Below are positions 1 through 63,862 of a stretch of 64,000 nt of DNA, piece after piece. Made by a program: the position numbers and the translations under genes. Origin of the DNA: Citrus sinensis (lineage: Eukaryota; Streptophyta; Magnoliopsida; Sapindales; Rutaceae); the NCBI RefSeq assembly GCF_022201045.2, contig NC_068558.1:48339501-48403500 (forward strand), written 5' to 3'. Each line of letters begins with the position of its first letter. Position 1 is the stretch's first letter. Below the pieces are notes generated by a model. That model was given only the letters and a program-made list of their open reading frames with translations. It made no database searches and was not told where the DNA came from.

Positions 1-351
1 TGGTCAATGAAAACAGACAAATATAAATGATGTCAATACAAAGGTAACAGTTCAATTTACTACTACCTAAGATTCCCTGTCCATGCACAAAAGAAAGACA
101 TTCCACCTTTGAAGGTACTGCCTCAGTCAAGTTTTTGACACAATCAATGCGCATTCAGACAGATATGATGGTTGCTTAAAAAAATAAAAAATAAAAAAAT
201 CCTCCCCGAGGTACCAAAGTTTTTCCTTTTTTCAATTTCATTTTGCCTGTCACAGAACAATTTTTTCTAGTTGTGGGGAATCAAGGGCGGCACAAAATCC
301 TAACAGAAAAGATTAGATCCATGTCAGTGAAGCTTGGTTCTGAGAAACAAC

Positions 352-27687: not shown

Positions 27688-27689
27688 AT

Positions 27690-29935: not shown

Positions 29936-29940
29936 GTTAA

Positions 29941-32900
29941 TCAGCCTGCAGCCACGGCATCTGTCCTTGGACTTGCATCCAAAAGCTGATGTAGCTTGGC
30001 ACCAGAGTTTGAGTTTTTCTCAAACAGGTGACCTCCTTCCTCCATGTTTCTATCAACAGTACCGGAGTTGTTAACTCTAGATAATAGGTTTTCTGTGCTA
30101 ACAGGTGTAACCCTCTTGTCCTCGTTCAAAACAATCTCTTGCTTGTTTCCCAGTTGTGCACTCTTCAGTTTTTCCTGTATGTTAAACCAATTAATAGATT
30201 ACAACAAAAACATTCGCATACAAAAACACATGACCTGTTGGCTTCATTGGAAAACAAACTAACAGTCCAGAAAATAATAACATTTATTTGGCATACCAGT
30301 AATGCTGCGTTTTCTTGCCTCAGTTTCTCAGAATTCTCTGATAATTGATTTATTTCAGACTTGAGGGAAGCATTCTCATCAATCAAGGAATCAACTTTAC
30401 GAGAAAGTTCTTCAGCCTCAGCCTGGAAGGAAGTTTTAAATAGGGAGAAGCAAGAAAATTAGCTCCTATATTGATGAGAGCTATACAGTGATTCCAACAA
30501 TTGAAACAAAGTTTTTAAGTAAGAGTACTCTCACATCTCTTTTTACTTTACCTGCTTCCTCAACCTAGACCTTCTAGCAGATTCTCGATTAGATTGTTTC
30601 CTCCTTTCCCGTTTCAGCTCCCGTTCATTCTGAGAAAAGGGTACAAAACAATCAAAAATTACTTTCAACCGAAAACTTCTAAAGACACTGCATTTACCAC
30701 CAAAATTCTAAACATAAACTTCTTGGAATACATCAAATCAAAACTTAGAAACAAGCCGCTCCATATCATGTTAAAGCAGAGTGGTAAGAAAGATTAAAAA
30801 TAAAATATAATAAAATAGCATTGGCAAAAAAATACCTGAATCCAGGTTTCAGGAGGTAAAACTGCACAAGGCTGTGGAACACTGGTTGGACTTGCCTTAA
30901 CGTTCATGCCAGGTGCATTCCTGAGCTCCAATTTTGTAGGCATGCCAGGAGAAAGCACAGGACCAACGGGTTTTCCTGAAACAGAAGTGGGAGCAACAGC
31001 TGTAGCTAACACCTTATCAGGAGTAGCATTCACACCAACAGGCACAGGAGTTGACTGGATATCAGTTTTCCCATCTCCTCCTGGCATAGAAGTTAAACAA
31101 ACCTTATAATATTGCAAACGAGACTAATCAATAGTGTCCCATGGCCCAATTATTTATTTTCATTTCCTTGCTTTTCCGTTATCCCCCATAGGTGGCATCA
31201 TATTCACATTGCAAGCTAATTGATAAAATCGGAGCACAGCATGCTATACAGGGCATACAAATTATTCTATAGAGCATTCTACAAATCATGAACATAATAA
31301 TAAATGATTTCTGAATATTATTGGAACAAATCATCACTACTACATTTGCCAATAAGATTCACAAACCCACAGGGCACACAGATAAAGTGCTCAATTAAGC
31401 CACAAAACAAGTATTTACTCAAGCAAACAAGTTATACTCAATTAGTCTATTCTCGAATCACAGGAAAAATTAGAATACCATCATCTCTCATCTACAATGA
31501 CTAACCACAGAGTGCTCAGTTAAGCCACATAAACTATGCTATCAGAAATGCTGTAAAACAGTGAATAGAAAATCCATGCCACTAAAATTAACAATCACAG
31601 GTATCTACTGTTCATCTATGCCACTTAAATTAACAATCACGGGTCAAAATCTACTGTTCATCTTCATGAAAACTTGGAGAAGAAACAGAATCATACCAGC
31701 AATTGGCGTTCCCTCTCGGCTTCTTTTCTTTCTAGATTGACCTGCCTGATAATAGGACAGACAGCGAAGATAGACAAAATTTATAAAATATACCAAAATT
31801 ATAGCATAAAATGCATAAGAACGTATTCATGTTTCGAAAAGGAAAAATAAGTCCTCACCCTAACTGTATTCCCATCACTTCCATCAGTAGAACCGTCGGC
31901 CTCACTGTTCAAATTGTCATTCAATTAGCATTAATAGAAAAGATAAACTAGGAACCACGATATGAAAATGAATATAAACAACCTCTGTGACGGCCTTTGT
32001 TCTGCTCCACCCTCAGCACTCTCAGCACTAGCATTGCCTATTGACATTGCCAGGCCATCTAACCCTTTCAGCTTCTTTGCTAAACCTCGATCTGCATTTC
32101 CTGACGACTTAGTAGGTGCCTCTGTGTTCAATGGGGTTACAGCCTGCATTATCGCATTATAATTACATCCAAAATCAACTTGTGGGAGCTTAAACTAAAA
32201 CTGCAATCACAAATGAATTCTATCTCTTCCCAACAACGCATTTCTTACTCATAATTATTTCACCAAAAATACAACAAAACATAGCTTTAATGGCTCCACT
32301 TACAGCAGGCGAGGTTGGAACACCATGATTGTGTGCATGTGATCCCTAGAATTTTGGGGAAAATCAAAAGGAAAATAGACACATCAGAAACTTTCTGTCA
32401 AACAGGGGGCAACAGCTAAAAGGATTTCCAAACACCACACGAACTCAAATTTTGCACACTACAGATAAATAATTATTTCGTAATATAAAAAGTGAAACTC
32501 CTCAGGTACCTAATGACAGAATAGACTATTCAAAAGATAACGGGGACATCAACTTACCAAAGGAACAGCAGGATGTGCATAAACACCTCCAGTAGAATAG
32601 ATGGCTGCATAAGGCGCTCCATATGGTGGCATCATAGGCTGGAAGAAATAAACAGATGCTAAATTATCCCAATCATGTATTAACTTAATTCACTCCTCAG
32701 AATAAGGAAATGATATATACTGTTGCCCCCAACTTAAATAATAAGGTAAAGCAATCCTCGTGAGCTTTGAGCAATACCTGGGCTGGGCCCCACATGTAGG
32801 GTTGAGGAGCATGACCAGATGCAATGGGTGAGTTGTAATATGGCGGAATAGCAACTCGGGGGCCATAATAAGCCTAAAGATGTAAAGAAAGAACATAATT

Positions 32901-46531: not shown

Positions 46532-47559
46532 TGTAGTTGCCGTTAATATTGGCTTCCATACAGGTTTCGTGAACGGCCGGCTCTTAATAGCGAGACACGT
46601 GTAAAGTGATGCGATTGTGGATGGAAATTCTGCAAGAGATATTGAACAAGACAAATGGTTAAGAATAATAGAATATTGGACCTCCCAGTCTGGTTGCTTG
46701 ACCGGCCCACGATGTTATTTCACAGCTGTGGCGCACCCACAACCCAGACCACCTCAATTCCCCGCAACTTGCAACCTAATACGACTGTCCCTTCAATTAT
46801 CCTATTACAATTTTAACGAGGTTATGATTATTTGTATTCCAGAAATTATTTTAAATATTTTATTATTCTATATAATTATATTTTAAATTAAAAAATTAAA
46901 TTTTACTTTCTACACTCTTAAAAATATCAACAAACACCTTACTTAAATTATTTAAATTAACTTACTCAACACCAATCAAATTATCTAGCACACCCAAAAT
47001 AAACTAAGAACAATTGTATACTGGAATCAAATTAATTAACATAACAATTGAAAAAAAAAAAAAAGAAAGCCATTTGGCTCCCCCAAAAAAAAAGGTAGAA
47101 GCAAAAAAATAAATAGACGAAGGAAGAGAAGAAGTTTAAGAAAAAGAAGGAAAAAAAAAAAGACAAAGAAGCGGAAAGAGAAGACTACAAAAAAAATATT
47201 TATCTTTTGTTTGGAAAATTAAAAAGAAAATATATGCTCAAAATATATTAAAAGTATTGATTTGCTCATTGTTTTACTAAAATTGTCTAAGAGATTGGAA
47301 ATAAATTTTTTAGAGTCTATAGTAAGAGAATTATCTATTGAATAGTGAATGTGTTATATGAGCGTTCAAAGTAATTATATTATGTTAGTTTATGGGAGAG
47401 AGTCCTCATTACTAATTCATATGATGGGTATTTTTGTAATAAAATATTTTAAAAAATAAGAGTATTCAAAGTAATTTATAAAGTACAAATACCAAAATGA
47501 CCTCAACCTTTTAATAATTTATTATTTTACAAATTAACAACATAAATAAACACAAAAAA

Positions 47560-48829
47560 GAATAATTTGAAATATTATTAATGAAAGGTTTAAAAGGTAT
47601 ATAATAAGCTAAAATAACTGGCATGTTTAAACCAATAGCTATTAAATTATAGTCCTTCTCAAATTAAATAAATAATCTTAAATCCTAATTAAACTAGAAT
47701 TGAAAAAAAAAACTCAAAAAAAAACTTACTAAAATATGATAAATCCTAATAAAAAACTAACGACTAATTTGGCTCAAATATTGTTATTTCTAATATATTT
47801 AACCTAGACACTTCCTACATCAATCTCTTCCTCTCTTTTTTTTTTTTAAAAAAAAACTCTTCATTAAGTTTTGATACAAATAAAATATATATGGAGGATG
47901 AAACTTATACTGAAGGAGAAAGTAATATTGCAATGCAAACATATAGAACTTTGCATAAACTTTTCTTGAAATTTGAAAGAATCTGCACTTCAATTTCTTC
48001 TTACTTTTTGTTCTGATTCTTCTAAAAGATGCAAATTTGCAAAATTAATCGATTAAAAGACCTCTTTTAACATTTCTCATGCTTTGCTCAACGTGCTCCC
48101 GATTGAATTTTTCCTTTTAAGCTAAATCTTATTCAAGTACAGCTTTATTGTCTTCAAAATAAATAGATAGAACCATATCAATTATCTTGGAGAGATTCTC
48201 TTCAAGAATAATTCTTGAATCTTCATCTTCAATCATATCATCCTTGATAACAATTGATGTCTCTTCAACTTAAGTTTCTTAAACATCTTCAATTGTATTA
48301 GGCTCAACACTCAAATCAATATTAAAAGTTGTATCTTTTGTGTAATTTTGGGTATTATTTTCTGATACTTATAGGTTTGTTGTTGGCTAAAATTGAAGCG
48401 GTAGTAGTCATTTTGAATATTCTCTCATCAGAGTTTTCAATGTCTTAATTAAACACTGCATCGATTGCAATGCCTTCATTCGATCTTTTAGTGCCTTTGC
48501 TGATTGTTCAAGATTTTTTATCATACAAACTTCGAAACTTTCTCTAAAAGGTGAATAATTTGAAAGGAAGTAGTTTGAAATATTTTTAATAAAAGTTCTG
48601 AAAGGTGTATAATAAACTAACATAGCAAGCCTATTTATAATAAGTAACTATTATATTTTAGTCCTTCTCAAATTAGACAATAATCTTAAATTCTAACTAA
48701 ATTAAAATAATAAATACAACTTAAATAAGTTTATTAAAGTAAAATAAATCTTAATAAAATACTAAAGACTAATTAACCTGAAATACTATAATTACTAATA
48801 TATTTTACCCATATACTTCCGAAATTAAC
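47560..48829 (-). mobile_element. Small broken LTR retrotransposon relic (TRIM-like)
   Basis: Two diverged direct repeats of about 270 bases (48553-48829 and 47560-47822) flank about 730 bases. On the minus strand each repeat begins TG, the first has a TATAAATAGG promoter-like word and ends in CA, and a purine-rich tract lies just before the second (47823-47845). The interior has only scraps of coding-like sequence. I see no target duplication. The marked divergence of the two repeats indicates an old insertion. The small size fits a non-autonomous TRIM-like element; the Copia-like look of the repeats is only an impression. It is broken. Confidence 0.55.
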
Positions 48830-49018
48830 ATTGAATCAAATTTAAATTTAAAAAGGAATTAAAAAAGTCAAATACGTCGTAGCAGACAAGTCGGTTATTT
48901 TAATTTAAAATGGACGACATATATCTCTAGCAATATGCTTGCTTTTGGATACGTCTTAGAGACCCCTCAAACGTGGATTTCAGATAGAGAATCAACCAAT
49001 CAGAATCTCAACTCTATC

Positions 49019-49024
49019 CACGTG
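49019..49024. promoter_or_regulatory. G-box in the CURT1A promoter
   Basis: CACGTG about 120 bases before the CURT1A ATG, with a CCAAT word about 25 bases upstream. G-boxes are common in promoters of light-regulated chloroplast genes. Confidence 0.5.
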
Positions 49025-49145
49025 TCAGCAAATGAATCTGTGTCCGAAATAGAGCAAAGAAAATCTCATCACCGCACCGGATAAACCAAACCAAGCATTA
49101 CAAATCGAAAAGAAAAAGAAAGAACACCACAAATCAAAAGTATCA

Positions 49146-50754
49146 ATGGCAGCGACGGCGTACGCGGCGGTGTTAACTCCACGTGTCCCCTCAACCACCA
49201 CCGTCAAAGTCAAATCTTCTCACTGCTTTGCTCTTCCCTGCCTCCCTCCTCGTTCGTCAACGCCACCATTCTCTTCTTCCATTAAACAAGTTTCAGGTAT
49301 TGGTTGCTATCCTACTCGCACTTGTTACTCTGAATTTTGTATTGTACCTTTCTTGTATCTACGGGCTTGCAATTTGTACGCTGTCGTGCATATTCTGATT
49401 TTATGGTGAAAAAAATTAACCAGAGACAATAGTTTAGAACTTTAGAAGGGAAAAATACACACACGCGCGCACAGAGACAGATATATATTATGATTTTGGT
49501 AGGGTTGGTTCAGTTTGACTGACATAAGCACGTAGATTAGTTGCTATACAGAAAATGGATTGGTTTTAGTGTTCATACAAATGACCTCACTATCAAGTGG
49601 AAGCGCAGTGGACGGGATGGTTATTGCTTGTGACTAGTAGTCCCTGATATCTATTATTTTTCTGCTCAATGCAAACCATGTTAGTCTATATTTTGCTTGA
49701 CACATTCCGCATTAAACTATGATTTTGAGCTTCTCTAATTGCCGGTTTCCCCTTTGCATGCTCTTGTTTTTCTATATGTTTCCCATTTCATAATTGAGCT
49801 AATTTATCTTTCATTAATTTGTTTGTAAATATTTTTGTTTAGTGTTTCTAAACAATATGCTTATTGATACTTTTCCTTTCAATTAGAGTCGAGAAGGTTT
49901 CCTTTGCTTCAGGTTAGAGCCTCTTCCTCAGAAGAGACATCCACAGTTGATGCAGATGAACTTTTTTCAGACTTGAAGGAAAAGGTAAGAATCAAGATTC
50001 AAGAGGGTACCAATGAGAATAGATTGATGTGGAGATGCTTTTCTAGCTTCTTGTAATTTGATTTCATGATCAGTTAGATTTGGTGATTGATGTTGGTTAC
50101 GTTTATTAGTGGGATGCCATTGAAAACAAGTCCACGGTACTTCTCTATGGAGGTGGGGCAATAGTGGCTGTTTGGTTATCCTCAACTATTGTTGGTGCCA
50201 TCAATTCAGTGCCTTTGGTATGCAATTTCCAGATTAGCTTACCCCTTTCTTTCTTCGTCATGTTTAGGAGATGAACCTTTCAAGTTCTTGACAGTAAATT
50301 AGCATATGCCTTACTTCATATTAATGAACCAGTCTGAAATGTCTTTCTTATGTTGTCAGCTTCCCAAACTCTTGGAGTTGATTGGACTTGGTTATACTGG
50401 ATGGTTTGTCTACAGATACCTTCTCTTCAAGGTAAGATTAAGAGACTGCAAAAGCTCACATGCATTTAGTTAGTTCTTGTTTCCTTTATTGCTAAGCTAT
50501 TAATTCATGACGTTTTGATTACGGAGTAGATTAGATTACTTTCTGGAACCTAACATTTTGATTGCGGAGTAGATTGCTTTCTGGAACCTAACAGATTAAT
50601 TGAATTTGAGAAATTTATGTCATCTGTTTCATTAGAGATTCTGCATCTAAGATGGTTAATATTTTAACAAATTGATTTGTTTTCCCAGTCAAGCAGAAAA
50701 GAACTAGCCACGGATATTGAAGCACTGAAGAAGAAGATTGCTGGAACTGAATAG
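49146..50754 (+). CDS. CURT1A: CURVATURE THYLAKOID 1A, chloroplast
   Basis: Five exons: 49146-49296, 49887-49984, 50110-50217, 50360-50431 and 50689-50754. They give 164 residues, matching Arabidopsis CURT1A in length. Residues 1 to about 60 are a Ser/Thr-rich chloroplast transit peptide (MAATAYAAVLTPRVP). The mature protein has an amphipathic N-terminal helix (ADELFSDLKEKWDAIENK), two membrane helices (about 92-113 and 122-143) and a C-terminal amphipathic helix (ELATDIEALKKKIAG). CURT1 proteins oligomerise at grana margins and bend thylakoid membranes. All splice sites are GT-AG. A G-box lies in the promoter. A MULE transposon inserted 495 bases after the stop. Confidence 0.95.
50513..50592 (+). 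repeat. Tandem duplication in CURT1A intron 4
   Basis: Two adjacent units of about 43 and 37 bases both begin TTTTGATT(A/G)CGGAGTAGAT and end CTTTCTGGAACCTAACA. Confidence 0.85.
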
Positions 50755-50756
50755 AT

Positions 50757-51249
50757 TGTACATTCTGGAGGCAATTCATGTTTGTCCCTGATAGTCATTT
50801 ATTTTGGTCCTCTATCATTGCATATGAGGCACTTGTATCCTGTAGAGTAGGCTGCGTACGGATTCGTTTTATCCCTGTATTTTCCAGTATATCCCTGGAA
50901 TAAGAGATTTGACAAAGTTATGTGTATGTCCAGGCATGATTGCTTCTGTGGTTTAGATCCAGAAGCAGATTCACTTTTTCCAGCAAAATACATGCTTCAT
51001 AAAATCTGTATCAAACTATTCACAAGTAACACAAACGTGCTTGTGATTGTCTCGTCGATGTGCAACTTTTGAGTAGCCTGAGTACTAGTGAAGGCAATCA
51101 ACTACCCAGCTTCGGCAGAAGGATGGGGAGAGGCATTTAACTTGGGCAGAAAAAAGTCCGCTTGGTTTTTTTGAAACAGAAAACCTCATGCCCCAATCCC
51201 AATCCCTTGCTCGAAAGGGGCGAGCCAGCATTGATATCAGAATAAGAGT
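50757..51249. other. CURT1A 3' UTR and flank up to the MULE
   Basis: About 490 bases with no gene. The first part is the probable 3' UTR. The last nine bases (51241-51249, AATAAGAGT) are the left copy of the MULE target duplication. Confidence 0.6.
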
Positions 51250-51330
51250 GGGAAATTTACAAAAATAACCATTAATATTTTATTATTTTCGTAATTAACC
51301 CTCTCAACTTTTTTCTATCAACATTAGCCA
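51250..51330 (+). repeat. Left terminal inverted repeat of the MULE
   Basis: Pairs with 58549-58629. The two agree best in the first 21 bases and at 51315-51330, with looser similarity between and for about 30 bases further inward. Confidence 0.8.
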
Positions 51331-51574
51331 AACACAAGCCTTTCTTCCCAAATTACCCTTCTTTACAGAACAAAACCAACATTGTTTCTCCCATCTCGCC
51401 AAACCAAAAGCAGCTTTTCATTCTTGAATCATAAGCCAACGGCGACCGCAAAAGACAACTGTAAAAGTGATATCCGATCATAATCTATCCAAATTCAACA
51501 CAAATCGACGTCACTTACTGGTATGAATTATTTTCTGAACTTACTGAACTGAGTCGGGTGAATCTGAATCTGGC

Positions 51575-51812
51575 GACAGGCTGCCTGTCGCAGCAAAACT
51601 TGGTGCGACAGGCACCCTGTCGCAACAGCTTTGGTGCGACAGGCAGCCTGTCGCACCAGGTGTGGTGCGACAGGCACCCTGTAGCACCAGGTTGGGTGCG
51701 ACAGGCACGCTGGCGCACCAGGTTTTGTGCGACAGGCACCCTGTCGCACCAGGTTTGGTGCGACAGGCACCCTGTCGCACCAAGCTTCGGGCGACAGGTT
51801 GCCTGTCGCACC
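51575..51812 (+). repeat. Subterminal array of eight 31-bp palindromic repeats, left end
   Basis: Eight units start GACAGG with a spacing of 31-32 bases. Each carries an inverted core such as GCGACAGGCACCCTGTCGC followed by a spacer like ACCAGGTTTGGT, which is itself loosely symmetric. Units differ at a few positions. The array ends 78 bases before the transposase ATG, so it lies in the promoter or leader. Similar units occur at 58034-58140. Overlapping open frames here on both strands are a by-product of the repeat. Confidence 0.93.
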
Positions 51813-51889
51813 CACTCTTGGAGATTTATTAAAATTGTATTATTTTAATTAGGACTGAAATAAAATATTTTTTTTTAATTTCAGGCTTA

Positions 51890-54526
51890 ATGGATTCAGT
51901 TGTACTTGAATTGTGTTACGATGGTTGGTGGGAGACATTAGAGAATGGCTGTATGGAGTACGTGAATGGTAAAAATCGAGCTTTTTTGGTTGGAAAAAAT
52001 TACATGTTTGATCAGTTATTGACAAGAGTATATGAGGTGTTAAAAATAAATCGTAATGACTATAGTATCACAATGAAGACAACTTTGAGGTCTAGTAACA
52101 CATTATATCGTATATGTGCAATGCCCATGGATATATGTGATGATGAAATGGTGAGGGTTGTGTTGCATATGGCATCTGACGTAGCTAATTTTGGATACAT
52201 TCCTATATTCGTGACCACATCACCTCAAGTTCCGAGCGAAGGTATTGAGCCACATGTCGATACAGAAACTTCGTTTAGAGCAAATATGTCTGGCCCCGAT
52301 AATGATGAAGAGGTGTTGCCAAGGACAATATCGCTGCAGCAATATTACTCTCCAATCCACGACAATTATGACAACATTGATGATAATGGCGTTACGTTAC
52401 AGGATGTTGGAGCAACGGTATTTCCAATAACAACGTCGTTGGAGCAACAATATTCTCCGTATCACAACAATGATTTTCGGGACAATGATGATTTTCATAA
52501 TGAGACAGAGGGGGATAATGTTTGTGCAGAACCTTCTAATAATACAAGGCGGGGCACTCGTTTCAATAATGATGGTGATGATGGAGGAGCCGGTCCTTCG
52601 AATGTTCCGTCGTTTCAGGATGAGGATGAGTGTGAAGACAATACTCCTATGAATAACAGAGGCAATAGACCTATTCCTTCTATGGTTCGATCGAGAAGGA
52701 GAATTGACCCCCTTACAAGTCTTGCTCCAACTTTACCTTCGAACATGGTTGCTCCAAGCTTTGTTAGCAGTTGTGACTCAGATGATATCAGCGTGGGTAA
52801 GCTATTTGCTGAGAAGAATGAGCTTATATTACAACTACGCAAGGTGGCCTTTAGAGATAAGTTTGATTTTAAGATTGCACGGTCTACTACGACACGTTTC
52901 GAGGCTCACTGTTGTTCAGAATCATGTAAATGGCGTATTCGAGCAACTAGAAGTTCGAACGAGCAACATGTTCCTTGGGTGGTGAAGAGAATTGATAATG
53001 TACACACTTGTCATAATGAGGTATTGGTTGATGGACGTCATCAACTAAGGAGCCGGGTTGTCGGTCATATTATCGCAGAAAAATATATTCAAGATAAGAG
53101 GATTTATACTCCCAATGACATAAGAGCAGATATGCAACAAGAATACGGTGTTCAGTTAACATACCAGCAGGCATATAGGGCGAGAGAAGTTGGTCTTGAA
53201 ATAGTACGCGGCAACCCTGCAGAGTCATACAACTTGCTCCCTAAATACTCTCACGTACTAACTACAGCGAATGAGGGTACAGTCACTCACCTCGAGCAGG
53301 ATGGAGATGGTAATTTCTTGTACTATTTTGTAGCACTCGGATCTTCCATCAAGGGGTTTATGCAGTACATTCGGCCTGTCATTGCTGTAGATGGTACTCA
53401 TCTGAAGGGATTATATCGTGGAAGCATGTTCGTGGCAACATGTCTTGATGGTAACAATCAATTGTATCCGTTAGCCATTGGGATCATGGATTCAGAAAAT
53501 AATGATGCTTGGGAATGGTTTATGATGAAGTTACATGGAGTGATTGGTGATAGACCTGAGTTGGTAATTATCTCTGATCGATGCACTGCCATAAGGAGAG
53601 CCGTTCTTAAAGTATTTCACAATGCAACTCATGGCGTTTGTTTTTACCACGTCAAAGGTAACATTAAGTCACAATTTAGAATGTCCAAAGCTCTTTGGGA
53701 TGAATTTGAGCCTGCCTTTATTAATGCAGCAAAAGCATATGGCCACGAGGAATTTAAGAGACAACTTGAAGGGTTGTGGATGATCCACTCGGGTGCGGCT
53801 GATTACCTAGAAAATAATGTCGGTACGTGTAATTGGGCAAGGTCTCAGTTTGAAGGTAGGAGGTACAGCATTCTTACCACCAACATCGCGGAGAGTGTTA
53901 ATGCTTTCATGAGGGAACCTCGAAAATTTCCTGTTACTCATCTTGTTGATCACTTCAGGAAAACATTGCAGCAATGGTTTTATGATAGAAAAATTGTGGC
54001 TGAATCCATGACTACTCGGCTAACAACATGGGCGGATGAAATAGTCACTGAGAGGAGAACTATAGCTGAAAGAATGATAGTTCGGCCGGTGTCTCCGCAT
54101 CGCTTTCAAGTTATAGGCGGTGGGCTTAAGGAAGGGTTGGTTGACTTGCAAAAGAGAACTTGCTCCTGCAGAGTGTTTCAGCTTGATCAGCTTGTGTGTG
54201 CTCATGCAATTGCGACGTGTCTAACACACCGGGTGGATTTTATTAACCTTTGCTCGGACTTTTACACTACAGAATCGTTGGCGATGGCTTATGCACAACC
54301 AGTGGAGCCAGTTGGTGATGTGGCTGATTGGGAAGTTCCAGATGAAATTCAGGAGCTGCAGGTATACCCACCAGTTGAGGCACCGCCACCTGGACGTCGT
54401 AAAGAGCGCAGAATACCCTCGGCTGGCGAGGACGTTGACCGGCGAACTGTAAGATGCGGCCGGTGTCATGAACTTGGCCATAATCGTAAGCGATGTAAGA
54501 ATCCTATTGCGTCGACTCGAAGTTAG
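51890..54526 (+). CDS. MuDR-type transposase (mudrA-like) of the MULE
   Basis: One uninterrupted exon of 878 codons. Residues 1-110 resemble the PB1-like N-terminal region of plant MULE proteins. An acidic, Asn-rich linker (about 120-260) follows. The MuDR DNA-binding region is at about 305-385, with a C-C-H-H-like pattern (HCCSESCKWRIRA, then HTCHNE). The MULE catalytic domain contains DGTHLKG (Asp501) and ISDR (Asp563), two of the DDE acids. A SWIM zinc finger (CSC at 758-760, then CAHA) and a CCHC zinc knuckle (CGRCHELGHNRKRC from 856) close the protein. It cuts and pastes the element through its terminal repeats. An acceptor-like TTTCAG at 51879-51884, just before the ATG, hints at a leader intron. 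Confidence 0.95.
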   Translation: MDSVVLELCYDGWWETLENGCMEYVNGKNRAFLVGKNYMFDQLLTRVYEVLKINRNDYSITMKTTLRSSNTLYRICAMPMDICDDEMVRVVLHMASDVANFGYIPIFVTTSPQVPSEGIEPHVDTETSFRANMSGPDNDEEVLPRTISLQQYYSPIHDNYDNIDDNGVTLQDVGATVFPITTSLEQQYSPYHNNDFRDNDDFHNETEGDNVCAEPSNNTRRGTRFNNDGDDGGAGPSNVPSFQDEDECEDNTPMNNRGNRPIPSMVRSRRRIDPLTSLAPTLPSNMVAPSFVSSCDSDDISVGKLFAEKNELILQLRKVAFRDKFDFKIARSTTTRFEAHCCSESCKWRIRATRSSNEQHVPWVVKRIDNVHTCHNEVLVDGRHQLRSRVVGHIIAEKYIQDKRIYTPNDIRADMQQEYGVQLTYQQAYRAREVGLEIVRGNPAESYNLLPKYSHVLTTANEGTVTHLEQDGDGNFLYYFVALGSSIKGFMQYIRPVIAVDGTHLKGLYRGSMFVATCLDGNNQLYPLAIGIMDSENNDAWEWFMMKLHGVIGDRPELVIISDRCTAIRRAVLKVFHNATHGVCFYHVKGNIKSQFRMSKALWDEFEPAFINAAKAYGHEEFKRQLEGLWMIHSGAADYLENNVGTCNWARSQFEGRRYSILTTNIAESVNAFMREPRKFPVTHLVDHFRKTLQQWFYDRKIVAESMTTRLTTWADEIVTERRTIAERMIVRPVSPHRFQVIGGGLKEGLVDLQKRTCSCRVFQLDQLVCAHAIATCLTHRVDFINLCSDFYTTESLAMAYAQPVEPVGDVADWEVPDEIQELQVYPPVEAPPPGRRKERRIPSAGEDVDRRTVRCGRCHELGHNRKRCKNPIASTRS

Positions 54527-54746
54527 TTGTATTTTGTGTGTTATTCGTTGGTTAAAACTATTATTGTTTTTGTGTTACGTTGGTTAAAACTGTTATTGTT
54601 TTTTGTATTTCGTTGGTTAAAATTGTTATTATTCATAAAACTTTATTTTATTTTAAAGTTCAAAATGTGAGGCATTTAAATTATATAAAATTAAGTGCGG
54701 AAATTAAAAAAAATGTAAATTTCAACATTGAAATTACTACATAGGT

Positions 54747-57700
54747 CTACAATATAATATCGTCATTAAATATATCAACCGCAATCTTCTTTCTAAAGTA
54801 CTCGACATGACTAGCGTTAAACTCCAACCTAAGCCCGAACATTAAATACATCGTAACCATCAATACAAAAACACCGCAATCGCCAGTTCCAGGCTCTTGT
54901 TGTGGCGCGCTCTTAACTGCGATAACTTTCCACGGGTCTTCACTCCGCAACTCAGGTCGTATATTGTAGAAGCCAACATATTCCAACCAGCGAGGGAATA
55001 TAACTTCAAGTGGCTTGAATTTCAACTTGTACCTTTTGTCGTCGCGAAATGTGAGTAATGAGTCATAAATCCAGACTTTATTTTTCCGAAAGTCAACTCG
55101 TGCTAGTACCCAATGCGCGCCGTCCAAGTTAACAGGGATGAGTAACTGCATATAAAAATTTAAAAACATGTTCGTTATATATGAAATTGAAATACAACAA
55201 AGAAAAAACAACTCCTCGAATATTTTCATTATAGAACATGTGAAATGTAATAAAATACATACCATATCGACATCCGTCATTAATTTTGACATTGTGTGCT
55301 GTCGCCCACACAGATAACTATTCAAGCGGTCGTCGAATACCATTGAATCGACTGCACAATTCCCGTTATTCCATAACTGATTCAAGAACACCTAGTACAT
55401 AGATAACCAAGAAATGCATAAATTAATTAAACTTAAAGGCAATAATTAAAGAAATTAAATAGTATTTGTAAGTTTTGTCGGCACGTTACCCAAAAAAATG
55501 TGTCCGTATGTGTGACACGTTGGAGTAAGGCATTTGGATACTGCCGTTGTTTCCCGCTAATCAAGCGGAGATACTCGTGAATATGCTGTAGAGAAATAGA
55601 AATATTACGATTTAAAAAAAAAATTATACACAAATACACAACAGTATACACCACGAGGAAAATATAAATACCTCATCGCCTAGCCATCCCATCGAAGCTG
55701 TCCCCAAAATTATTTGAAAGAATGACCGCGGGTGCTGGACGTTCCGGCGGACTCTGATATCACCAGTGAACCATCGATCAAACTCAGCAAACCAACTAGA
55801 GTCCTCCAATCCTCTCAGCGGATTTACATCCACACTCGTACTCATGTCAATCGCATGCTCCATGATTTGGGGTCGAGGTAACCTCCGGACGTTCTGTCCT
55901 CGCCTGACCGGAGGAATCATGTAAGGACTGTTATAAACATACGACGGTATGTACGCGCGGCCGAACTTACTAACGCCCGGAGGCACCTCTGTGAACACCT
56001 GCACGCTCTCCCCACTAACATCCCCGTAGAAACTAACCAATGACGTGGGCGTAGACAAATTTTCATTGCCCACGTCAGTATACACTCCATAGTCATCCGG
56101 GGCCTGTACAATCGCCAAAAAGAACATATTAAATAATTATCAAATTAAAAGTTAAACGAACATAATTATTTAATATAAATTAGCTTACCGCATACGAGCG
56201 TGCAGTGGGAGAATCCTTATTTGGACGTTTAGAAAATGTGTCGATGAAGCCAACAACGGTTTCTTTAAAATCTTTTAATTCTGACTTTATTTCATACACG
56301 TTACGATCAATCTTATCCAGCCGTCGTCGTACGTAATCATTAAACTGCTTTGTCCTCGACTAATACAAAAGAAAAAAATAATAACAACCAAAGTGAAAAA
56401 TATCGTATATTATTTATAACCTCAGAATCCCGTGCGTCATCAGAGTTGTCTGTTTGCTGCTGGTCATCAACAGCCACCTCATCCTCAAAAGCGTCATGAC
56501 GCTGCTCAAAAGCGTCATGACGCTGCTCAAAAGCGTCATGACGCTGCTCAAAAGCGTCATGATGCTGCTCAAAAGTGTCATGACGCTGCTCTGGTATTGG
56601 GTTTGGTATGTCGTCATGATCGTCATGCTCGTCCGATTGTCTTGTAACCGACGGCATCGCGTTGATTGAGGGTTGGTGCTGTATAAAGTATCATTTAAAA
56701 TTACTAAATGAAAAGTCAAAAATTTCGATAAAAAAAATTTTTGTACTTACAGTATACCGACCTTATGAACCCAGTCTGGAATGCTTGGCAAGTAATCCTT
56801 CACAGAGAGCCAATATTTTCTGCTACTCTCCTTTGAATTTGGCTCAAGAGTTTGTAAAACATCCGTCTGCCATAAATTTAATTGAAAAATTTAAGTAAGT
56901 AAACCCAACTTAAATTTAGTAAAGTTAAAAAAATAAGTAATACATATTACTTACAAGACGAGATTCGTCGTTGAAGAACGAATAAACCTCCGCAAAGTTG
57001 ATTCTCGAAGACGCCATAGGCTTCCATTGCAGAATGCGGGGAATCTTACTCTTCGTTTTGACGACCCATGTTGATGGTAACCCTCCGATTGCTTCATAAA
57101 TCCAAGCCTACAACAACCAAAGTGAAAAATCAAATAAAACAACTATCAAATATTTAATACTATAAAACTTATTAATAAACAAAAAAAAGCACCTGCACCC
57201 CAGACGTAAATCCGTAAAGATTGTATTTTTCAATATTATGATCTGGATTTTTCAACCGAGTCTTCTTAAATTTCTCGTCTTTTTCGAACAGTGCATTGTC
57301 AAGACTCTCATAAATCATTTTCCACGACAATAGACCCCATGGACGCTTTCGGAAGTACTGAATATCATCAACTTGGTCAAGCCAATCGAAATTAATTTGA
57401 CAGTGATTTTTTCTTGCATTTAGTACTCTGTCCGCAAAATAAAACATCGCAATCTTTAATGCGTCCATATCGTCTATTTCCTCGAAATTCAACTCCTTAA
57501 ATACGGCATCAAATTGCTTCACATTAATCTTACGATGCACACCACCAAAATACGTATTCCGTAGCCTCTGCTCCATTTCATCATTTTTTTCATTGGTATC
57601 AACACCAAATGAAAGTCCAGTAACCAAGCACCATTCGACAATTGACAAGCGAATCAAATGCTTACCAATTTGAAACCATAACTGATCCTCACGGCTATCT

Positions 57701-57951
57701 TCTTCATGGGCCACTTGACGCAGTAAAAGATTATGCAAAATTACCCCACTAAATGGAAAACTTCGACACTCCAAGAAATGCCCAAATATATCCTTTTTGA
57801 ACATACTCAACTGCCGGTTTGTTAATTTTTCCTCGATAGCTTTTACGACCGAAGATAACATACACATGCTCGAAATTCGACCAGGAAAGTGATCAGCATA
57901 ACGAAAATACATCTTGCCTACTTCAATATCCGGTGATTCTGATTTCGCCAT
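54747..57951 (-). CDS. DUF1985 plus Ulp1-like (C48) cysteine protease gene of the MULE
   Basis: Nine exons, all phase 0 and with GT-AG borders: 57951-57193, 57107-56955, 56866-56762, 56678-56421, 56359-56189, 56103-55672, 55585-55490, 55391-55263 and 55145-54747. They give 833 residues. The N-terminal about 300 residues match the plant transposon-associated DUF1985 style (WCLVTGLSFG, KPWGLLSW-like RPWGLLSWKMIYESLD). Exon 4 holds an in-frame repeat of FEQRHDA. The C-terminal domain has the C48 triad: His712 (GAHW), Asp729 (IYDSL) and Cys791 (GTGDCGVF), with Gln783/784 for the oxyanion hole. Such proteases remove SUMO in host cells; a role in transposition is unproven. The junctions are inferred from frame and splice signals. 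It converges with the transposase, 220 bases between stops. Confidence 0.85.
56485..56591 (-). repeat. In-frame 21-bp tandem repeat in exon 4 of the protease gene
   Basis: About five units of 21 bases encode FEQRHDA-type heptads (some His or Thr variants). Each unit contains the perfect 12-bp palindrome GCGTCATGACGC or a one-base variant. The unit length keeps the frame open. Confidence 0.92.
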
Positions 57952-58033
57952 GTATCTGTAATATTTATAAAATTATTACATTATATTTACAGAAATAAAA
58001 AATTAAATCGTAAAAAAAAAACTCTAATTTTTT

Positions 58034-58140
58034 GGTGCGACAGGCGCCTGTCGCTCCAAAAAACTCGTGCGACAGGCGCGCGCCTGTCGCACCAATCTGG
58101 TGCGTGAGGCTTGCTGTCGCACCAGATTTGGTGCGACCGC
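58034..58140 (-). repeat. Subterminal palindromic repeats, right end of the MULE
   Basis: About three units carry the same GCGACAGG...CCTGTCGC inverted core as the left array, in one case expanded as GCGACAGGCGCGCGCCTGTC. They lie 85-190 bases upstream of the protease ATG. A GC-rich stretch with GCGCGC words follows (58140-58200). Confidence 0.88.
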
Positions 58141-58548
58141 AGGCCGCGCATGGGCGCGCGCTGCTGCCCAGCGATGGGCGCCGGCGCGCGCCCTGCCCCC
58201 CTCCCTCCCCACCCCCAAAATTAAGCGCAATCACTCCAAAATCAAAAACAGTACTCCCAAACACCACCAACCACCACAAACATCATCACCACCATTATCA
58301 ATCTCAAGCTATAACTATTATTATTCTAAAATCTCATTTTAAATTAATGAAAATAAGAAAAATGACTAACCTAGGTTTTGTTGAAGGTTGTGGATCGTAG
58401 ATCGGATGCCGGTGAGAGATGGAGCCGCCGCCGACGGGGTTGATGTCGCCGCCGATGATGGGAGTTGGATCGGTTTGGGAGAGATGAGAGAAAGAGAGTG
58501 TTGGGGAAGAGATGAGGGAGGGGTATTTTGGACTCAAATGTTGTTTAA

Positions 58549-58629
58549 TGGCTAATGTTGATAGAAATATTTTTGGGGGGTTAAGATGAAAAAAAGCAAA
58601 GTTTTTTTGGTTATTAGTGTAAATTTCCC
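58549..58629 (-). repeat. Right terminal inverted repeat of the MULE
   Basis: Inverted partner of 51250-51330, ending GTAAATTTCCC next to the target duplication AATAAGAGT (58630-58638). Confidence 0.8.
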
Positions 58630-58638
58630 AATAAGAGT

Positions 58639-59400
58639 AGGTTGCAGGAATCACGTCATAGTGATACAATCCTTTTCGATAAATCAAAAAAGAGAATAGA
58701 GACAGCATATGCCAGATCAAGGGTTATGAGTAAGCAGTCCATATCTGTCCACCCTGATCACCAGGACATATTCCTCATCCTGAGATCAGTTATTAGCTTA
58801 ATCTATAAGCAGCTTGATTCTACAACCTTCATCACCGTACAAGTTAAACAACTATGGGTGTTATGCATGCATTCGAAACCCGCTCTCTACTGTGCTAGGC
58901 ATGCTTTATGTTACATAATAATTGAACACAGAACATATAACTCATCTTTATCTACATGCTCAGTGCAATTATTTTTCCTAAGGTCTGCTGCAGCACTTAA
59001 GACGCATCCCAACTAGAACATGATACTAGCCAGGAACTTGCCAATAATAGTTAACTAATTAAATACAACATGCACCAAGAGAAGCCTTGAAGAAATCAAA
59101 TTAACAACCAAATAAATTACGTACTCCAACACGTTCTTTAAACAGTAACCTCATAGAAAACAACCATTACACAGTAACCTCAAAGAAAACAACCTTCCAT
59201 CATCATGGTGCCTACTACAATTATCTGATCATCGGTTACACAATTATGAGATCGTCAATATAAAGCTTTTTTTTCCTTTTCTTTTTCCAAAATATAAGTA
59301 ACCCGCTGATATTACATAAAACTAAGCATATCGATTTCATCATAAAATTAACAACAAAGAAAGCATGCATGGCATGCAACAAAAAAATATAAAAAGAGAA
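58639..59400. other. Flank between the MULE and eIF1A
   Basis: About 760 bases, with the probable eIF1A 3' UTR in the right half. A short direct repeat (AACAGTAACCTCATAGAAAA / ACAGTAACCTCAAAGAAAA) lies near 59140-59190. An open frame at 58642-59016 has no protein-like features. Confidence 0.5.
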
Positions 59401-59403
59401 AGA

Positions 59404-59841
59404 TTAGATCCTATCAATATCCTCATCCTCAAACTCAATATAATTATCGGGACCAGCTTCATCGTCGTCATCAATACCGGCAGCAATCCCTTCGTTCAAC
59501 CTAGTAGTCTCAGGCAATTCACCGTAAGCCTTGAGCAAGCGGGCCTCATCAGGCATGTATTTCAAAATAACATCGGCTTTATCGTCTTGATAATCTCTCA
59601 AACCGACAAGAATAATATCACCCGCACCAATCCAAACCTTTTTGTGCATCTTACCACGGATGTGGCAGAGACGCTTGGCGCCGTCGATGCACATGGCCTC
59701 GCATCGACCGTTCCCCAGCATCCGAAGCACCTGCGCGTATTCTTGACCGTCTTCCTTGAATATCAGCTCGCGTTTCTCGTCGTCCGCCTCGTTCTTTCCT
59801 CGCTTCCGATTCTTTCCTCCCTTTCCCTTGTTCTTCGGCAT
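59404..59841 (-). CDS. Eukaryotic translation initiation factor 1A (eIF1A)
   Basis: Single-exon protein of 145 residues, the normal length. It has a Lys/Arg/Gly-rich N-terminal tail ([20 protein letters not shown]), an S1-type OB fold (about 30-100, with [21 protein letters not shown] and [17 protein letters not shown]), and an acidic C-terminal tail ending [14 protein letters not shown]. eIF1A binds the 40S ribosomal subunit in the cytosol and, with eIF1, opens the mRNA channel for scanning and start-codon choice. Lack of introns in the coding part is common for plant copies. No break is visible. Confidence 0.97.
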
Positions 59842-60516
59842 CTTTTTCCTTTACTTTTGTTTTTCGGTCTCTCTTCTCTCTTCTCTCGCTATGTATATTG
59901 CTATGTATATTTTTGCGTTGGCTATACCTCAATATTTTAAATATGAAGCTTGGGCTTGGGAGTTTGCCTTTCAAACTTGTCGTACAAGCAACCACTCGCG
60001 TGCTTGCATTTTTCTCTTTTGTTCTTCTTGAACCGATATCAGCGTGAAGAGTTCTTTACAAGGCTAGGCTACAGATGGATGGATGAATAAAGTGCACGTG
60101 GAACGGTAAAGTATACGTGGCTCCGATTAATTTTATGCTTACTGTTGTAATTCACTTTTTTTAAAATTTACTATTATTATTATCTTTTTTTATGTTTACT
60201 TTTTGCTAATGGCATCTGTTAGTTTATCGCTACCGTTCATTGTGAATGGGTCCTACAAGGGAGCATAGAATCGAACATCAGTGGACTGTGTTGATCGATT
60301 ATACTTGCTATAGTTACAGACAAGGAGTCAGGACCGAGGTCCTATATCATTTTTCTATAAAATGTAAAACGGGCCGGATGCCCCGACTGCCCCAATCTGT
60401 TTCAATATAACCATCTGCCCCTTTTTTTCCTTGAATTGCACAAAAGGAAAGAGACAAACACCGGATATTATGCGATTAGCATATATTCAAAGTATACAAT
60501 TCAAATAGGCTTTTTT

Positions 60517-60666
60517 TATGTTACATAATTACGTAACATATATGATTATGTAGCAGTCGTTGGATTTTTATTAAACAATCGTAGAAATAATATGATTTTA
60601 TTATCTTATATTTTTATAACCGTTGGCTACTATATAATCATGTATGTTATATGATTATGTAACATA
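60517..60666. mobile_element. Fold-back MITE, about 150 bp
   Basis: Outer arms of about 50 bases are inverted copies (left TATGTTACATAATTACGTAA, right ATGATTATGTAACATA), with an inner match TAGCAGTCGTTGG against CCGTTGGCTACTA. The centre is AT-rich. Non-coding. Confidence 0.75.
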
Positions 60667-60879
60667 ACAATCTCCTTCAAATAAATAAGTTCAAGAAGAC
60701 GTAATTTCTTCAAAATAATTTTTTTTATATTTTTATTTCGGTTGGCTTTTAACACCTATCTAAAATCTTTATAACACCACTTTTTTAATATTATTTTTTA
60801 AAATATCCTTAATTTAATTGATAAAATATAAATTCATATATTACAACTAACTATTGTCCCGCAAAATTTTACTCAAAAA

Positions 60880-61095
60880 ATTATTTTTTAAAATTACACA
60901 GAAAAATTTCATATTTAAAAAGTTTTAATTAAAATTTAAGATATAAATATAAATTATGAGATGGGGTGGATGTAAAAAATTTAATTAAAAATAATTTATT
61001 TAAATGTTTAATTAAATTTTTATTTAAGATAAAAAAAATTAATATGTGTTACGTTATTTAAATTATTTAAAAATAAATTTTATAAAGAATTTTGA
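60880..61095 (+). repeat. Dispersed AT-rich repeat, copy 2
   Basis: Relative of 5600-5845 in the same orientation (shared ATAAATTATGAGATGGGG-type core). It directly abuts the hairpin at 61108. Confidence 0.5.
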
Positions 61096-61107
61096 TGGGG
61101 GGTCCTT

Positions 61108-61214
61108 CTATCTTACATGCATGTAAGATACATTCCTCTCACATGAATGATATGTGGGTCCCACACATACACTATTCATGTGAGTGGAATGTATCTTACA
61201 TGCATGTAAGATAG
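61108..61214. mobile_element. Near-perfect hairpin element, about 107 bp
   Basis: Arms of about 45 bases are inverted copies: CTATCTTACATGCATGTAAG at the left and its reverse complement at the right. The arm's own outer end is also a palindrome (CTTACATGCATGTAAG). The centre holds GTGGGTCCCAC, another palindrome. It could be a small MITE or a precursor-like hairpin. Confidence 0.8.
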
Positions 61215-62198
61215 GGTTTACCTTTTGATGGGTGTCAAAAGATTACACTTTTATTTTTGCTTGTGTGCTGTACATGTGCGTTGCTAATTGATGGTCCCAT
61301 CATAAAGTAGGACAAGTCAAGCACCGGAATCATGCCAAACTTTTGGTAGATTTGCACATTAATAAATCCTACAAGACCATTTTAAATTTAGACCCTAAGC
61401 ATGCACGGTCGGTGGATAACCAGCCATCAGGATTTTTTTTTCTAATTTTTTAATTTTATTTATTTATGCAAGAAGTGCCTTACTCACCTTCTACCCAAAC
61501 TTCAACCTTTCTCTCCAAGACCCCAATTTGCCCACAACCTTAAAAGTCTAAGGTCAGATTTCTTCTGCCAAAATTGACACCCTATACCACCAATTGGTCT
61601 ATAGACTTCAAAATCATGTCTTAGATCTCCCCGCTCCATAACACCATTCTAATACCCTCATGGTATTAGCCAAATCTGACCAGGTCCCAACCATAATCCA
61701 AATCTCAAAACAAATTCCCCGTCAAAGCTCGGACAAGACCTGAGTCCAAAAAGCCCGCTCCGGTATTTAAAAATATGGGAAGAGACATTCAGAACGCATG
61801 AGACCAAAATACAGTCTTCTAACGGTCAAATATTGTCATCGAGGCAGAGGTACCTACTAAGCAGTAAGCACACAAATGCAAGTTTGACAAAATAGAGTTC
61901 TAAAAGAGCTGCATTCTTCAGCTGAAACCTGTCAGAATACAAACTCATCGTTCCAGGAACCAACCACATTTTACATATTCTCCCTCTCAGTTTCCATTTC
62001 CCAAACACAACTCATCCCAGTAATAATAACATGACACAAAGCAAATTCTAATTGTATATGAACCTCTGAACACAAGTATCTATAGCGCTGAATGCCTACT
62101 TATTACATTCAACATGAGAGAAACAAAAGAGGTTAGTGCTACCAAAAGTTTTAAATCAATTGGAAGCCTCAACAAGAAAGACTCTAATGATGCAAGAG

Positions 62199-63862
62199 TC
62201 AGTGCCTGATAGTAAGCTCAGCCCTGAGGTGGAGGATACCATTGATGAAGTAAAGACTATCATCCGCCATGAAGGATGTCCATGGTATGGCAAATAAGTT
62301 TCGGTATCCAACTGCCTTGCCTCCAGTGAATGTGTAGTTGCCTTTGTATTTGCTAACAAACTCCTCAGTAGGCTTTGACCTGGCTGCAAACTCGTAATCC
62401 ACAGCAAAACTCACTGACCCCTTTTCCTGCATCCCCAAGAACAACCCAAAACAATGGAAAGAGCTCTGCTGGTCCATGTTGCAGTGTGCAGAGAGGAAGA
62501 ACCCTTGCCCACCCAAGTGAAATGCTTGAGAGTAGACGCGTCCAGATGGGAACAAATTTTCACACTCCTCCCGCTTCAAGTCCAGGTAAACCACACATTG
62601 TTGCCGAGGACGCTCAAATTCTACTACTTTGACGGGCCGATACTTGTATGCACGTTCAACAAAGCGTCGATTCAAGGTGACCGACTCCTCTGCCGCCAAG
62701 GTTCGTTGTCGATGTGGGGCTTCAGCCTTAAAGAACAGAGCTTCAAGCACTAACTTGGACGCAACATCATGATCAAAGTCATTACAGGTTAAAACCTTCT
62801 TTAGCTTCCGGCAGGTCATGTGAGGAAAGCGAATGAAGCGTGCAAGACGTGAGCCCAAAACCTCACGTCGCTCCTCCACTCTCGGGTACTGGGCTCTGGC
62901 CCACTTTAACACAAAATCATATACAGCATCTTCAGAAGCAATTTGAAGATCATCACTAGACAATATTGCCTCAACTCCAGCAAGGGGCAAGGCCATTACC
63001 TCATCTTGGAACCTGGTAAAAATGAAAACCTCATGCATAAGCTTCCCAAATATTAGAAGCGTTAAAGTCTCACAAGCATTTAAACCTTCTAAATAAGGAA
63101 TCCAGTAGAACAGTCAAGAATACAATCCCATACAAGCAAGAACCTACTTGGTCATGTCCTTATATCGAGATGCAAGGTACTGTCTCGCAGCATCGGTCAA
63201 TGGCTGGACTGCTTCACCCATCAGGACACTGGAGGGAAGCTCCAGATAAAGCAATGCAGACTCTGGAGTCATGGGCATATTCCTCAATAGACGGCTGCAG
63301 TATCGCATGCATGAAGCAACCTCAAACTTGTCCGCAGCCATAAGCACATCAAGCAATGCAGGAGCTGCAGTAGTCGATAAAGTATTGCTGTACATAAAAT
63401 TCAGAAGTTCCATGAGGGCAGCTTCCTCTGCTCAAGAAAAGAAAGAACTTATTAAAAGTAGCACTGGTAAATTTAATTATCCAATAATAAGCAAAGGACC
63501 TCAAGCAAGAAATCTTACAAAGATAAAGAATAATTATTTATCAAATAACAGCCAATAAAAATTGACCATACCAGATGCATTGATACGCAGCGCTACATGT
63601 CGTTGTTCTGACTCCTTCATCCCATTTGAGAATAGCTACAACAGATAAACAAAAAAGATTCAGAATCATGTGATAGAAAACATCTATTAGTGATTGCACC
63701 AAAATTTTAAAAACACCACAGAGCAAAATCATAACCCTACTTTGTAGAAAAATGGACTTTTTGCCGCTAAGATTGGAGAGCTTATGTGTAATGTTTTAAC
63801 TCTCACAACTGTAGAACAATCCATGCTCCAGCTTGACTCATTTCCATTTGCAGCTTCATCAC
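62199..63862 (-). CDS. BTB/POZ-BACK protein, LRB/POB1-like (5' part outside window)
   Basis: Four exons are readable: 63862-63741, 63635-63572, 63427-63148 and 63012-62199. A good acceptor at 63863 shows that upstream exons lie beyond the right edge. The BTB domain covers the first exons ([19 protein letters not shown], then [18 protein letters not shown]). The BACK region follows ([20 protein letters not shown]). The C-terminal part ([18 protein letters not shown], ending [11 protein letters not shown]) matches plant LRB1/LRB2/POB1. These proteins are nuclear substrate adaptors for CUL3 ubiquitin ligases; in Arabidopsis they act on phytochrome B and PIF3 in light signalling. Which of the paralogues this is cannot be decided from the part seen. 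Confidence 0.9.

What the first reader, a model, noticed from the sequence alone, without database searches (positions are those of the whole stretch)
51250..58629. Apparently complete two-gene MULE with intact target duplication
Seen: identical 9-bp flanks, matching terminal repeats, an unbroken 878-codon transposase and a nine-exon second gene whose exons all join in frame. Known: most plant MULE copies are truncated or gene-disrupted. Inference: this copy is young and may still be able to move, which is uncommon to meet in a random window. Insertion between two essential-looking genes (CURT1A and eIF1A) in their shared 3' region would be tolerated.
Basis: partly seen in the sequence, partly recalled or inferred. 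Interest (0 to 1): 0.75.

Follow-up and report, generated by a model that had tools for sequence, protein, structure and literature searches.

The report
Young, complete two-gene plant Mutator transposon
This is a recently inserted, structurally complete plant jumping gene that carries its own transposase plus a second gene that may help it escape silencing; a copy of the same stretch of chromosome without the insert shows that it jumped in, although whether it can still move is not shown.

Summary
A 7,380-bp Mutator-like element (51250-58629) lies between perfect 9-bp duplications (AATAAGAGT), with degenerate terminal inverted repeats (79/113), an open 878-aa transposase and an antisense nine-exon gene (DUF1985 + Ulp1 protease). 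An unfilled copy of the site, with one AATAAGAGT, lies 1.35 Mb away on the same contig. The copy is young: 8 private substitutions in 6,782 columns. It is not rare: 14 full-length transposase copies, this one included, are 99% identical or better, and 4 of 12 full copies examined have both genes open. Substitutions since insertion are mostly C-to-T, densest at CG/CHG sites, the trace of methylation; present mobility is unproven. That link is inference from published Arabidopsis work. Filed as a new member of a known kind (KIU/VANDAL-like MULE), probably in sweet orange (inferred).

The parts
51241..51249 (.). left 9-bp target-site duplication AATAAGAGT
   Evidence: single copy at the junction of the empty site C3:49742339-49742538
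51250..58629 (+). complete MULE, 7,380 bp
51250..51362 (+). degenerate terminal inverted repeat, 5' end
   Evidence: 79/113 with the other end; best elsewhere in window 57/113
51573..51812 (.). 5' subterminal array: 7.7 units of 31 bp, mostly palindromes around GCGACAGG...CCTGTCGC (14 cores, both strands)
51890..54526 (+). transposase gene, 878 aa: MuDR DNA-binding, MULE, SWIM domains, C-terminal CCHC knuckle
57193..57951 (-). gene 2 exon 1 (start codon; DUF1985)
56955..57107 (-). gene 2 exon 2
56762..56866 (-). gene 2 exon 3 (weak donor GTCGGT)
56421..56678 (-). gene 2 exon 4; contains the in-frame 21-bp (7-aa, FEQRHDA) tandem repeat 56484-56591
56189..56359 (-). gene 2 exon 5
55672..56103 (-). 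gene 2 exon 6
55490..55585 (-). gene 2 exon 7
55263..55391 (-). gene 2 exon 8 (part of the Ulp1 domain)
54747..55145 (-). gene 2 exon 9 (Ulp1/SENP-like catalytic part, stop)
58027..58140 (.). 3' subterminal copies of the same palindrome (4 GCGACAGG cores)
58517..58629 (-). degenerate terminal inverted repeat, 3' end
58630..58638 (.). right 9-bp target-site duplication AATAAGAGT

Best explanation
A young, structurally autonomous cut-and-paste Mutator-like element of the KIU/VANDAL-like (degenerate-TIR) sort. Shown: a near-identical copy of the site without the insert exists, with one 9-bp target sequence; both genes are open; the family has many near-identical copies and complete derivatives without the transposase. 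Inferred: the transposase acts on the degenerate ends; the DUF1985-Ulp1 protein works as a sequence-specific anti-silencing factor that binds the palindromic GCGACAGG arrays next to the ends and opens the element's chromatin; the host later re-methylates settled copies. So this copy is probably competent but silenced at least part of the time. The confidence given is for the element's identity, completeness and recent insertion; for the anti-silencing role of gene 2 I would say about 0.5.
For: Insertion: empty site for this copy, 99% over the 200-bp joined flanks, one AATAAGAGT at the junction; junction-spanning empty sites for 6 of 8 copies tested, of 14 whose flanks were prepared. Family: 14 full-length transposase copies at 99% or more, this one included, among 40 scored of 342 candidates; perfect 9-bp duplications in 14 of 16; 878-aa frame open in 12 of 20 loci; gene 2 open in 6 of 12 full copies, both genes in 4 of 12. 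Constraint: pooled dN/dS 0.48 for the transposase and 0.29-0.36 for gene 2 without exon 4. Array: 18 GCGACAGG cores, all in the two arrays, none elsewhere in the element or window; present in 31 of 32 distinct 5' ends, 1 to 17 cores; 366 palindromes in the genome per strand, none in the reversed control; 4 of 4 arrays opened that lay away from the listed DUF1985 hits carry at least one family terminus. Published parallel: VANC proteins (DUF1985, tandem peptide repeats) bind short motifs in fast-changing non-coding tandem repeats and remove methylation (PMC5735166 and PMC10398659, passages); a review says KIU-carrying Vandals do likewise (PMC13317346, passages).
Against: No expression, methylation or excision data. 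Of 96 singleton substitutions in nine young copies, 71 are C-to-T/G-to-A, about 3 times denser per site at CG and CHG than at CHH (CG+CHG to CHH 45 to 26, against 14 to 24 in the duplicated flanks, Fisher p 0.009): copies have been methylated. In this copy 6 of its 8 are of that type. Gene 2 binding to the array was not tested; the array could instead bind the transposase or be mere slippage. The palindrome is not peculiar to this family: 17 of 25 clusters listed lay away from listed DUF1985 hits and family ends, 13 of them not opened. Gene 2 is broken in 6 of 12 full copies. Two of 8 copies gave no empty site and two of 16 no 9-bp duplication. Structure prediction of the DUF1985 part never ran.
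Confidence: 0.85

Rival explanations
1. The element is a complete but dead relic: intact because it is young, permanently methylated, mobilised if at all only in trans by another copy.
For: Methylation-type substitutions in each of the nine young copies; gene 2 broken in 6 of 12 full copies and the 878-aa transposase frame broken in 8 of 20 loci.
Against: Both genes of this copy are open, and dN/dS below 1 suggests constraint in the family.
Confidence: 0.4
2. The palindromic array is a transposase binding site or a replication-slippage by-product, unrelated to gene 2, and the Ulp1 gene is a passenger.
For: Arrays sit near both ends; derivatives without the transposase keep the 5' array, as expected for any cis site needed to move.
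Against: The two complete derivatives seen (L084, L085) keep only the 5' array, not the 3' one, odd for an end-recognition site; gene 2 has the lower dN/dS, though the sets of copies differ.
Confidence: 0.4
3. The empty site is a misplaced haplotype in the assembly rather than a segmental duplicate.
For: The match is long: stretches sampled at window 300-3800, 27000-31000 and 46806-62502 all recur about 1.35 Mb away at 97-100%; the source plant is a heterozygous hybrid if the identification is right.
Against: The sampled stretches are in the same order and orientation on one contig; identity is uneven (100% rounded at the far left; 0.74% different around the insert). Either way it is an allele or paralogue without the insert, so the insertion stays demonstrated.
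Confidence: 0.35

Closest known systems
KAONASHI / KIU MULEs of Arabidopsis; also grapevine, melon and rice MULEs with ULP1 domains (PMC2528002 and PMC13317346, passages)
   Same: mudrA-type transposase, weak or missing terminal repeats, Ulp1 domain in the reverse orientation, high copy number
   Different: different host; array of 31-bp palindromes near both ends; this gene joins DUF1985, a heptapeptide repeat and Ulp1 in one nine-exon frame (not compared letter by letter with KIU, no reference held)
VANDAL elements with the VANC anti-silencing gene (PMC5735166, PMC10398659, passages)
   Same: DUF1985 protein with variable tandem peptide repeats; [quoted passage not shown] 9-bp duplication, SWIM and CCHC in the transposase (PMC6446971, table passage)
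   Different: Ulp1 is not mentioned for VANC21/VANC6 in those two papers (word 'ulp' absent); motifs differ (YAGTATTAY, AGTTGTCC/AGTTGTAC against GCGACAGG)
CitMule of clementine (PMC4334395, passages)
   Same: citrus MULE, 6.9 kb, degenerate terminal repeats, 9-bp duplications
   Different: Jittery-related with FAR1 domain, 795-805 aa protein, five-exon transcript; the word Ulp1 is not in the text
three MULEs inferred to be hyperactive in sweet orange (PMC9832951, passages and section 13)
   Same: MULEs behind 31 of 40 spontaneous structural variants in what is probably the same genome
   Different: cannot be matched: their sequences are in supplements I could not open; the one MULE insertion whose size I saw is 5,086 bp (INS16), and the text does not say whether it is one of the three

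Membership tests
MULE superfamily | MULE transposase domain | tested here: met
   PF10551 E 3.4e-20, PF03108 E 3.4e-9, PF04434 E 2.7e-6
MULE superfamily | 8-11 bp target duplication made on insertion | tested here: met
   14 of 16 copies perfect 9 bp, 0 of 240 controls at 8 or 9; empty site with one copy at the junction
MULE superfamily | terminal inverted repeats, long or degenerate | tested here: met
   79/113, control maximum 57/113
KIU-type MULE | antisense gene with Ulp1/C48 domain | tested here: met
   PF02902 E 3.3e-29 at residues 622-828; SENP1 match E 4.8e-10 for the last exon
KIU-type MULE | transposase groups with the VANDAL/KI clade in a tree | not testable with these tools
   no reference plant transposases held
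VANC-type anti-silencing system | DUF1985 protein with variable tandem peptide repeat | tested here: met
   PF09331 E 2.9e-19 for the exon 1 frame, 1.7e-18 for the whole protein; 7-aa repeat present in 12 of 12 full copies, its number varying
VANC-type anti-silencing system | variable non-coding tandem repeats with a motif concentrated in such elements | tested here: inconclusive
   variable array and motif shown; of 25 listed genomic clusters 8 lie near listed DUF1985 hits or family ends and 4 of the other 17 were opened, all four with a family terminus; 13 clusters and the unlisted places were not examined
VANC-type anti-silencing system | protein binds that motif and lowers methylation in vivo | not testable with these tools
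   needs EMSA, ChIP, bisulfite data
active transposon | new insertions or excisions observed | not testable with these tools
   one haplotype held, no reads

The most novel reading that the evidence does not exclude
A self-contained anti-silencing cassette in a clonally propagated tree crop: a DUF1985-Ulp1 (SUMO-protease-like) protein recognises the palindromic GCGACAGG array, whose copy number is a tunable, fast-changing docking platform, and derivatives without transposase hitch-hike by keeping just the ends and the 5' array. The Ulp1 domain would link de-SUMOylation to loss of DNA methylation on transposons.
Probability: 0.3. Interest if true: 0.7.

Novelty: new member of a known kind. Interest (0 to 1): 0.42.

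Why it matters
Complete young copies, an empty site, riders without transposase and a sharply defined motif make a good test bed for a question that a 2026 review still calls open (PMC13317346, passage): what the Ulp1 domain does in anti-silencing transposons. If the host is sweet orange, the family is also a candidate source of bud-sport variation; PMC9832951 attributes 31 of 40 spontaneous structural variants to three MULEs, which I could not match to this family.

Tried and rejected
Looking at the site in other species was impossible (no plant relatives held). Empty sites were not found for 2 of 8 copies tested (C4:22.01, C3:7.55); six more whose flanks were prepared were not searched. The copy at C8:25.14 has no duplication and C4:22.01 shares only 7 bp; both stay in the count. 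Of 20 three-prime ends fetched, 15 could be paired with a held 5' end; five were not used. That the palindrome marks only this family was rejected: it occurs 366 times per strand and beside DUF1985 genes outside it. The listing shows only the first places, on C1 and C2; of 25 clusters formed from the 50 distinct places listed, 8 lay within 8 kb of a listed DUF1985 hit (150 scored of 332) or a family 5' end, and I opened 4 of the other 17. That settled copies simply escape methylation is contradicted. A note and my first count said gene 2 is open in 7 of 12; one search shows 6 of 12. dN/dS pairs share branches, include broken copies and come from different sets of copies for the two genes, so the values are rough. 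A fold of DUF1985 was wanted; an alignment of 22 proteins was made but no model.

Literature searches: CiMULE2 had no occurrence in the 20 papers listed of 347; 'CiMULE, CitMule, CsMULE' gave four papers, of which I opened only PMC4334395; 'citrus, MULE, Ulp1' gave one paper, on wheat, not opened; 'anti-silencing, citrus, transposon, VANDAL' one review, not opened. Other searches. I found no description of this element in these; the library holds open-licence papers only. The EMBO J 2022 paper on anti-silencing in Mu-like elements is not held and is known here only through citing passages. All papers cited were seen as passages, PMC9832951 also in its section 13.
Full report
What was checked. 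The 9-bp flanks, the ends, the 878-codon frame and the nine-exon gene were all confirmed. The transposase has the MuDR DNA-binding, MULE and SWIM domains; the motifs DGTHLKG (501), SDR (562), CFYHVKGN (584) and ESVN (668) and a C-terminal CCHC knuckle (856) were read and fit the DDE pattern of MULEs (pattern recalled). Gene 2 joins DUF1985 (residues 76-215) to a Ulp1 protease domain (622-828); its last exon matches SENP1 at E 4.8e-10, and the His, Asp and Cys of the catalytic triad (assignment recalled) lie at GAHW, WIYDS and DCG. The insert lies between convergent CAAD-domain (CURT1-like, name recalled) and eIF1A genes.

Where it is. The window is C3:48339501-48403500 of a genome of 299,734,781 bases in 11 contigs. 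The size fits haplotype A of the Valencia sweet orange assembly, 290.3 + 8.7 Mb in nine chromosomes (PMC9832951, passages), with two organelle records added (my guess). This is an inference; no name was given.

The family. The transposase query gave 40 scored matches out of 342 candidates; 14, the window's included, are full length at 99% or more. Twelve full copies, the window's included, were put together from fetched pieces; lengths run from 7,179 to 7,555 bp. The 878-aa frame is open in 12 of 20 loci; gene 2 is open in 6 of 12 full copies and both genes in 4 of 12. Of 16 splice sites in each of 12 copies, one in one copy is changed. Pooled dN/dS is 0.48 for the transposase (18 copies, pairs over 1% apart) and 0.36 (all pairs) or 0.29 (pairs over 1% apart) for gene 2 without exon 4 (12 copies). 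Both look constrained; the pairs are not independent.

Insertion shown. Joined flanks of eight copies were searched in the genome. For the window copy, C3:49742339-49742538 matches the whole 200-bp junction at 99%. The fetched stretch (L107) matches window 46806-51252 at 99.1% and 58630-60402 at 99.2%, with one AATAAGAGT at the junction; further right, two pieces match at 97.8% and 97.5%. Sampled stretches at window 27000-31000 (99%) and 300-3800 (100% rounded) recur at the same distance of about 1.35 Mb. Junction-spanning empty sites were also found for the copies at C3:18.33, C9:27.31 and C3:4.53 and C7:22.78 and C5:22.89, at 84-94% where the whole junction is covered or, for C3:4.53, over 72-80 to 182-191 of the 187-bp block in 26 repeat copies (87-93%). 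None was found for C4:22.01 and C3:7.55. So 6 of 8.

Age. Eight of 6,782 columns are private to this copy among nine young copies; its nearest relative differs from it at 13 of about 6,800 sites. PMC6466647 equates a mean pairwise divergence of 0.26 with about 23 million years (passage), which implies about 5.7e-9 per site per year. On that rate the private branch is about 0.2 million years and the flank divergence (60 of 8,154) about 0.65 million. Both are rough; methylated cytosines mutate faster, so the first is more likely too old than too young, and the uneven identity of the duplicated block makes the second uncertain.

Signs of silencing. Of 96 singletons in the nine young copies, 71 are C-to-T or G-to-A: 25 of 544 CG sites, 20 of 401 CHG, 26 of 1,729 CHH, against 10 changes of any kind at 4,104 A/T sites. 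CG and CHG each exceed CHH (p 8e-5 and 1.5e-4). The duplicated flanks show a weaker version (14 CG+CHG to 24 CHH; p 0.009 against the element). This is the trace of cytosine methylation and speaks against free activity of settled copies. CpG observed/expected is 1.31 in gene 2, 1.31 in the 3' array, 0.82 in the transposase and 0.68 in the 5' array, against 0.70 and 0.68 in the window on either side. The high values in gene 2 suggest that the lineage that kept moving has been little worn down; that is inference, and the 5' array does not share it.

The arrays. Near the 5' end, 7.7 units of 31 bp are built of GGTGCGACAGG...CCTGTCGCACC palindromes; four more cores lie near the 3' end. GCGACAGG occurs 14 and 4 times there and nowhere else in the element or window. 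The array differs between copies that are otherwise at least 99% identical in the transposase: 4 to 14 cores in L001-L009; over all, 1 to 17 in 31 of 32 distinct 5' ends, none in the remaining one, which also lacks the transposase start. In the genome the full palindrome occurs 366 times per strand, the reversed control never. Of 25 clusters among the 50 distinct places listed, 8 lie within 8 kb of a listed DUF1985 hit or family end. I opened 4 of the other 17: all four carry a family terminus, two of them at both ends. These two are complete elements of 1,180 and 1,088 bp with perfect 9-bp duplications, with the 5' array only and no match to the transposase, and with a captured gene fragment that I recognise as the 5' part of a DRT111/SPF45-like gene (name recalled). 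Of 41 matches to that fragment 31 cover it whole; the donor gene may be among them, and only these two copies were checked for ends.

Mechanism. In Arabidopsis, VANC proteins carry DUF1985 and tandem peptide repeats, bind short motifs in fast-changing tandem repeats of non-coding regions, and strip methylation (PMC5735166, PMC10398659, passages); a review states that the Ulp1-bearing versions (KIU) act likewise and that the role of Ulp1 is unknown (PMC13317346, passages). Gene 2 has DUF1985, a heptapeptide repeat whose number varies between copies, and Ulp1; the element has the arrays. I therefore take gene 2 to be the likely anti-silencing factor and the array its target. The likeness is by anatomy; no binding was tested.

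Verdict. An ordinary kind of element in an unusually legible state: complete, young, with its empty site in the same assembly. New member of a known kind.

Noticed in passing
L082:3856-9901 (C3:30279000-30288900): A second DUF1985 MULE family (terminus GGGAAATTTAC at 3856) with a GC-rich palindromic array of about 1.3 kb, including inverted arms 97-99% complementary, before its DUF1985 gene; 7 places in the genome score identically (74.4 bits) with an open 269-aa frame.
   Followed up: partly
C4:19391872-19401900 of G000: Seven DUF1985 matches, each with one stop, at a regular 1,607-bp spacing: a satellite-like array made from such a gene.
   Followed up: no
L084:956-2135 and L085:885-1972: Pack-MULEs with this family's ends and 5' array carrying a DRT111/SPF45-like gene fragment (name recalled); 31 matches in the genome cover the fragment whole.
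   Followed up: partly
window 300-62502 (sampled at 300-3800, 27000-31000, 46806-62502): The sampled parts of the window recur about 1.35 Mb downstream on the same contig (C3:49.69-49.75 Mb) at 97-100%, uneven along the length; segmental duplicate or misplaced haplotype.
   Followed up: partly
window 29189-29320: A 132-bp repeat with about 40 further scored matches, most at 81-99%, across the genome, perhaps a miniature transposon.
   Followed up: no
window 54532-54630: Three 33-bp tandem units just after the transposase stop codon.
   Followed up: no
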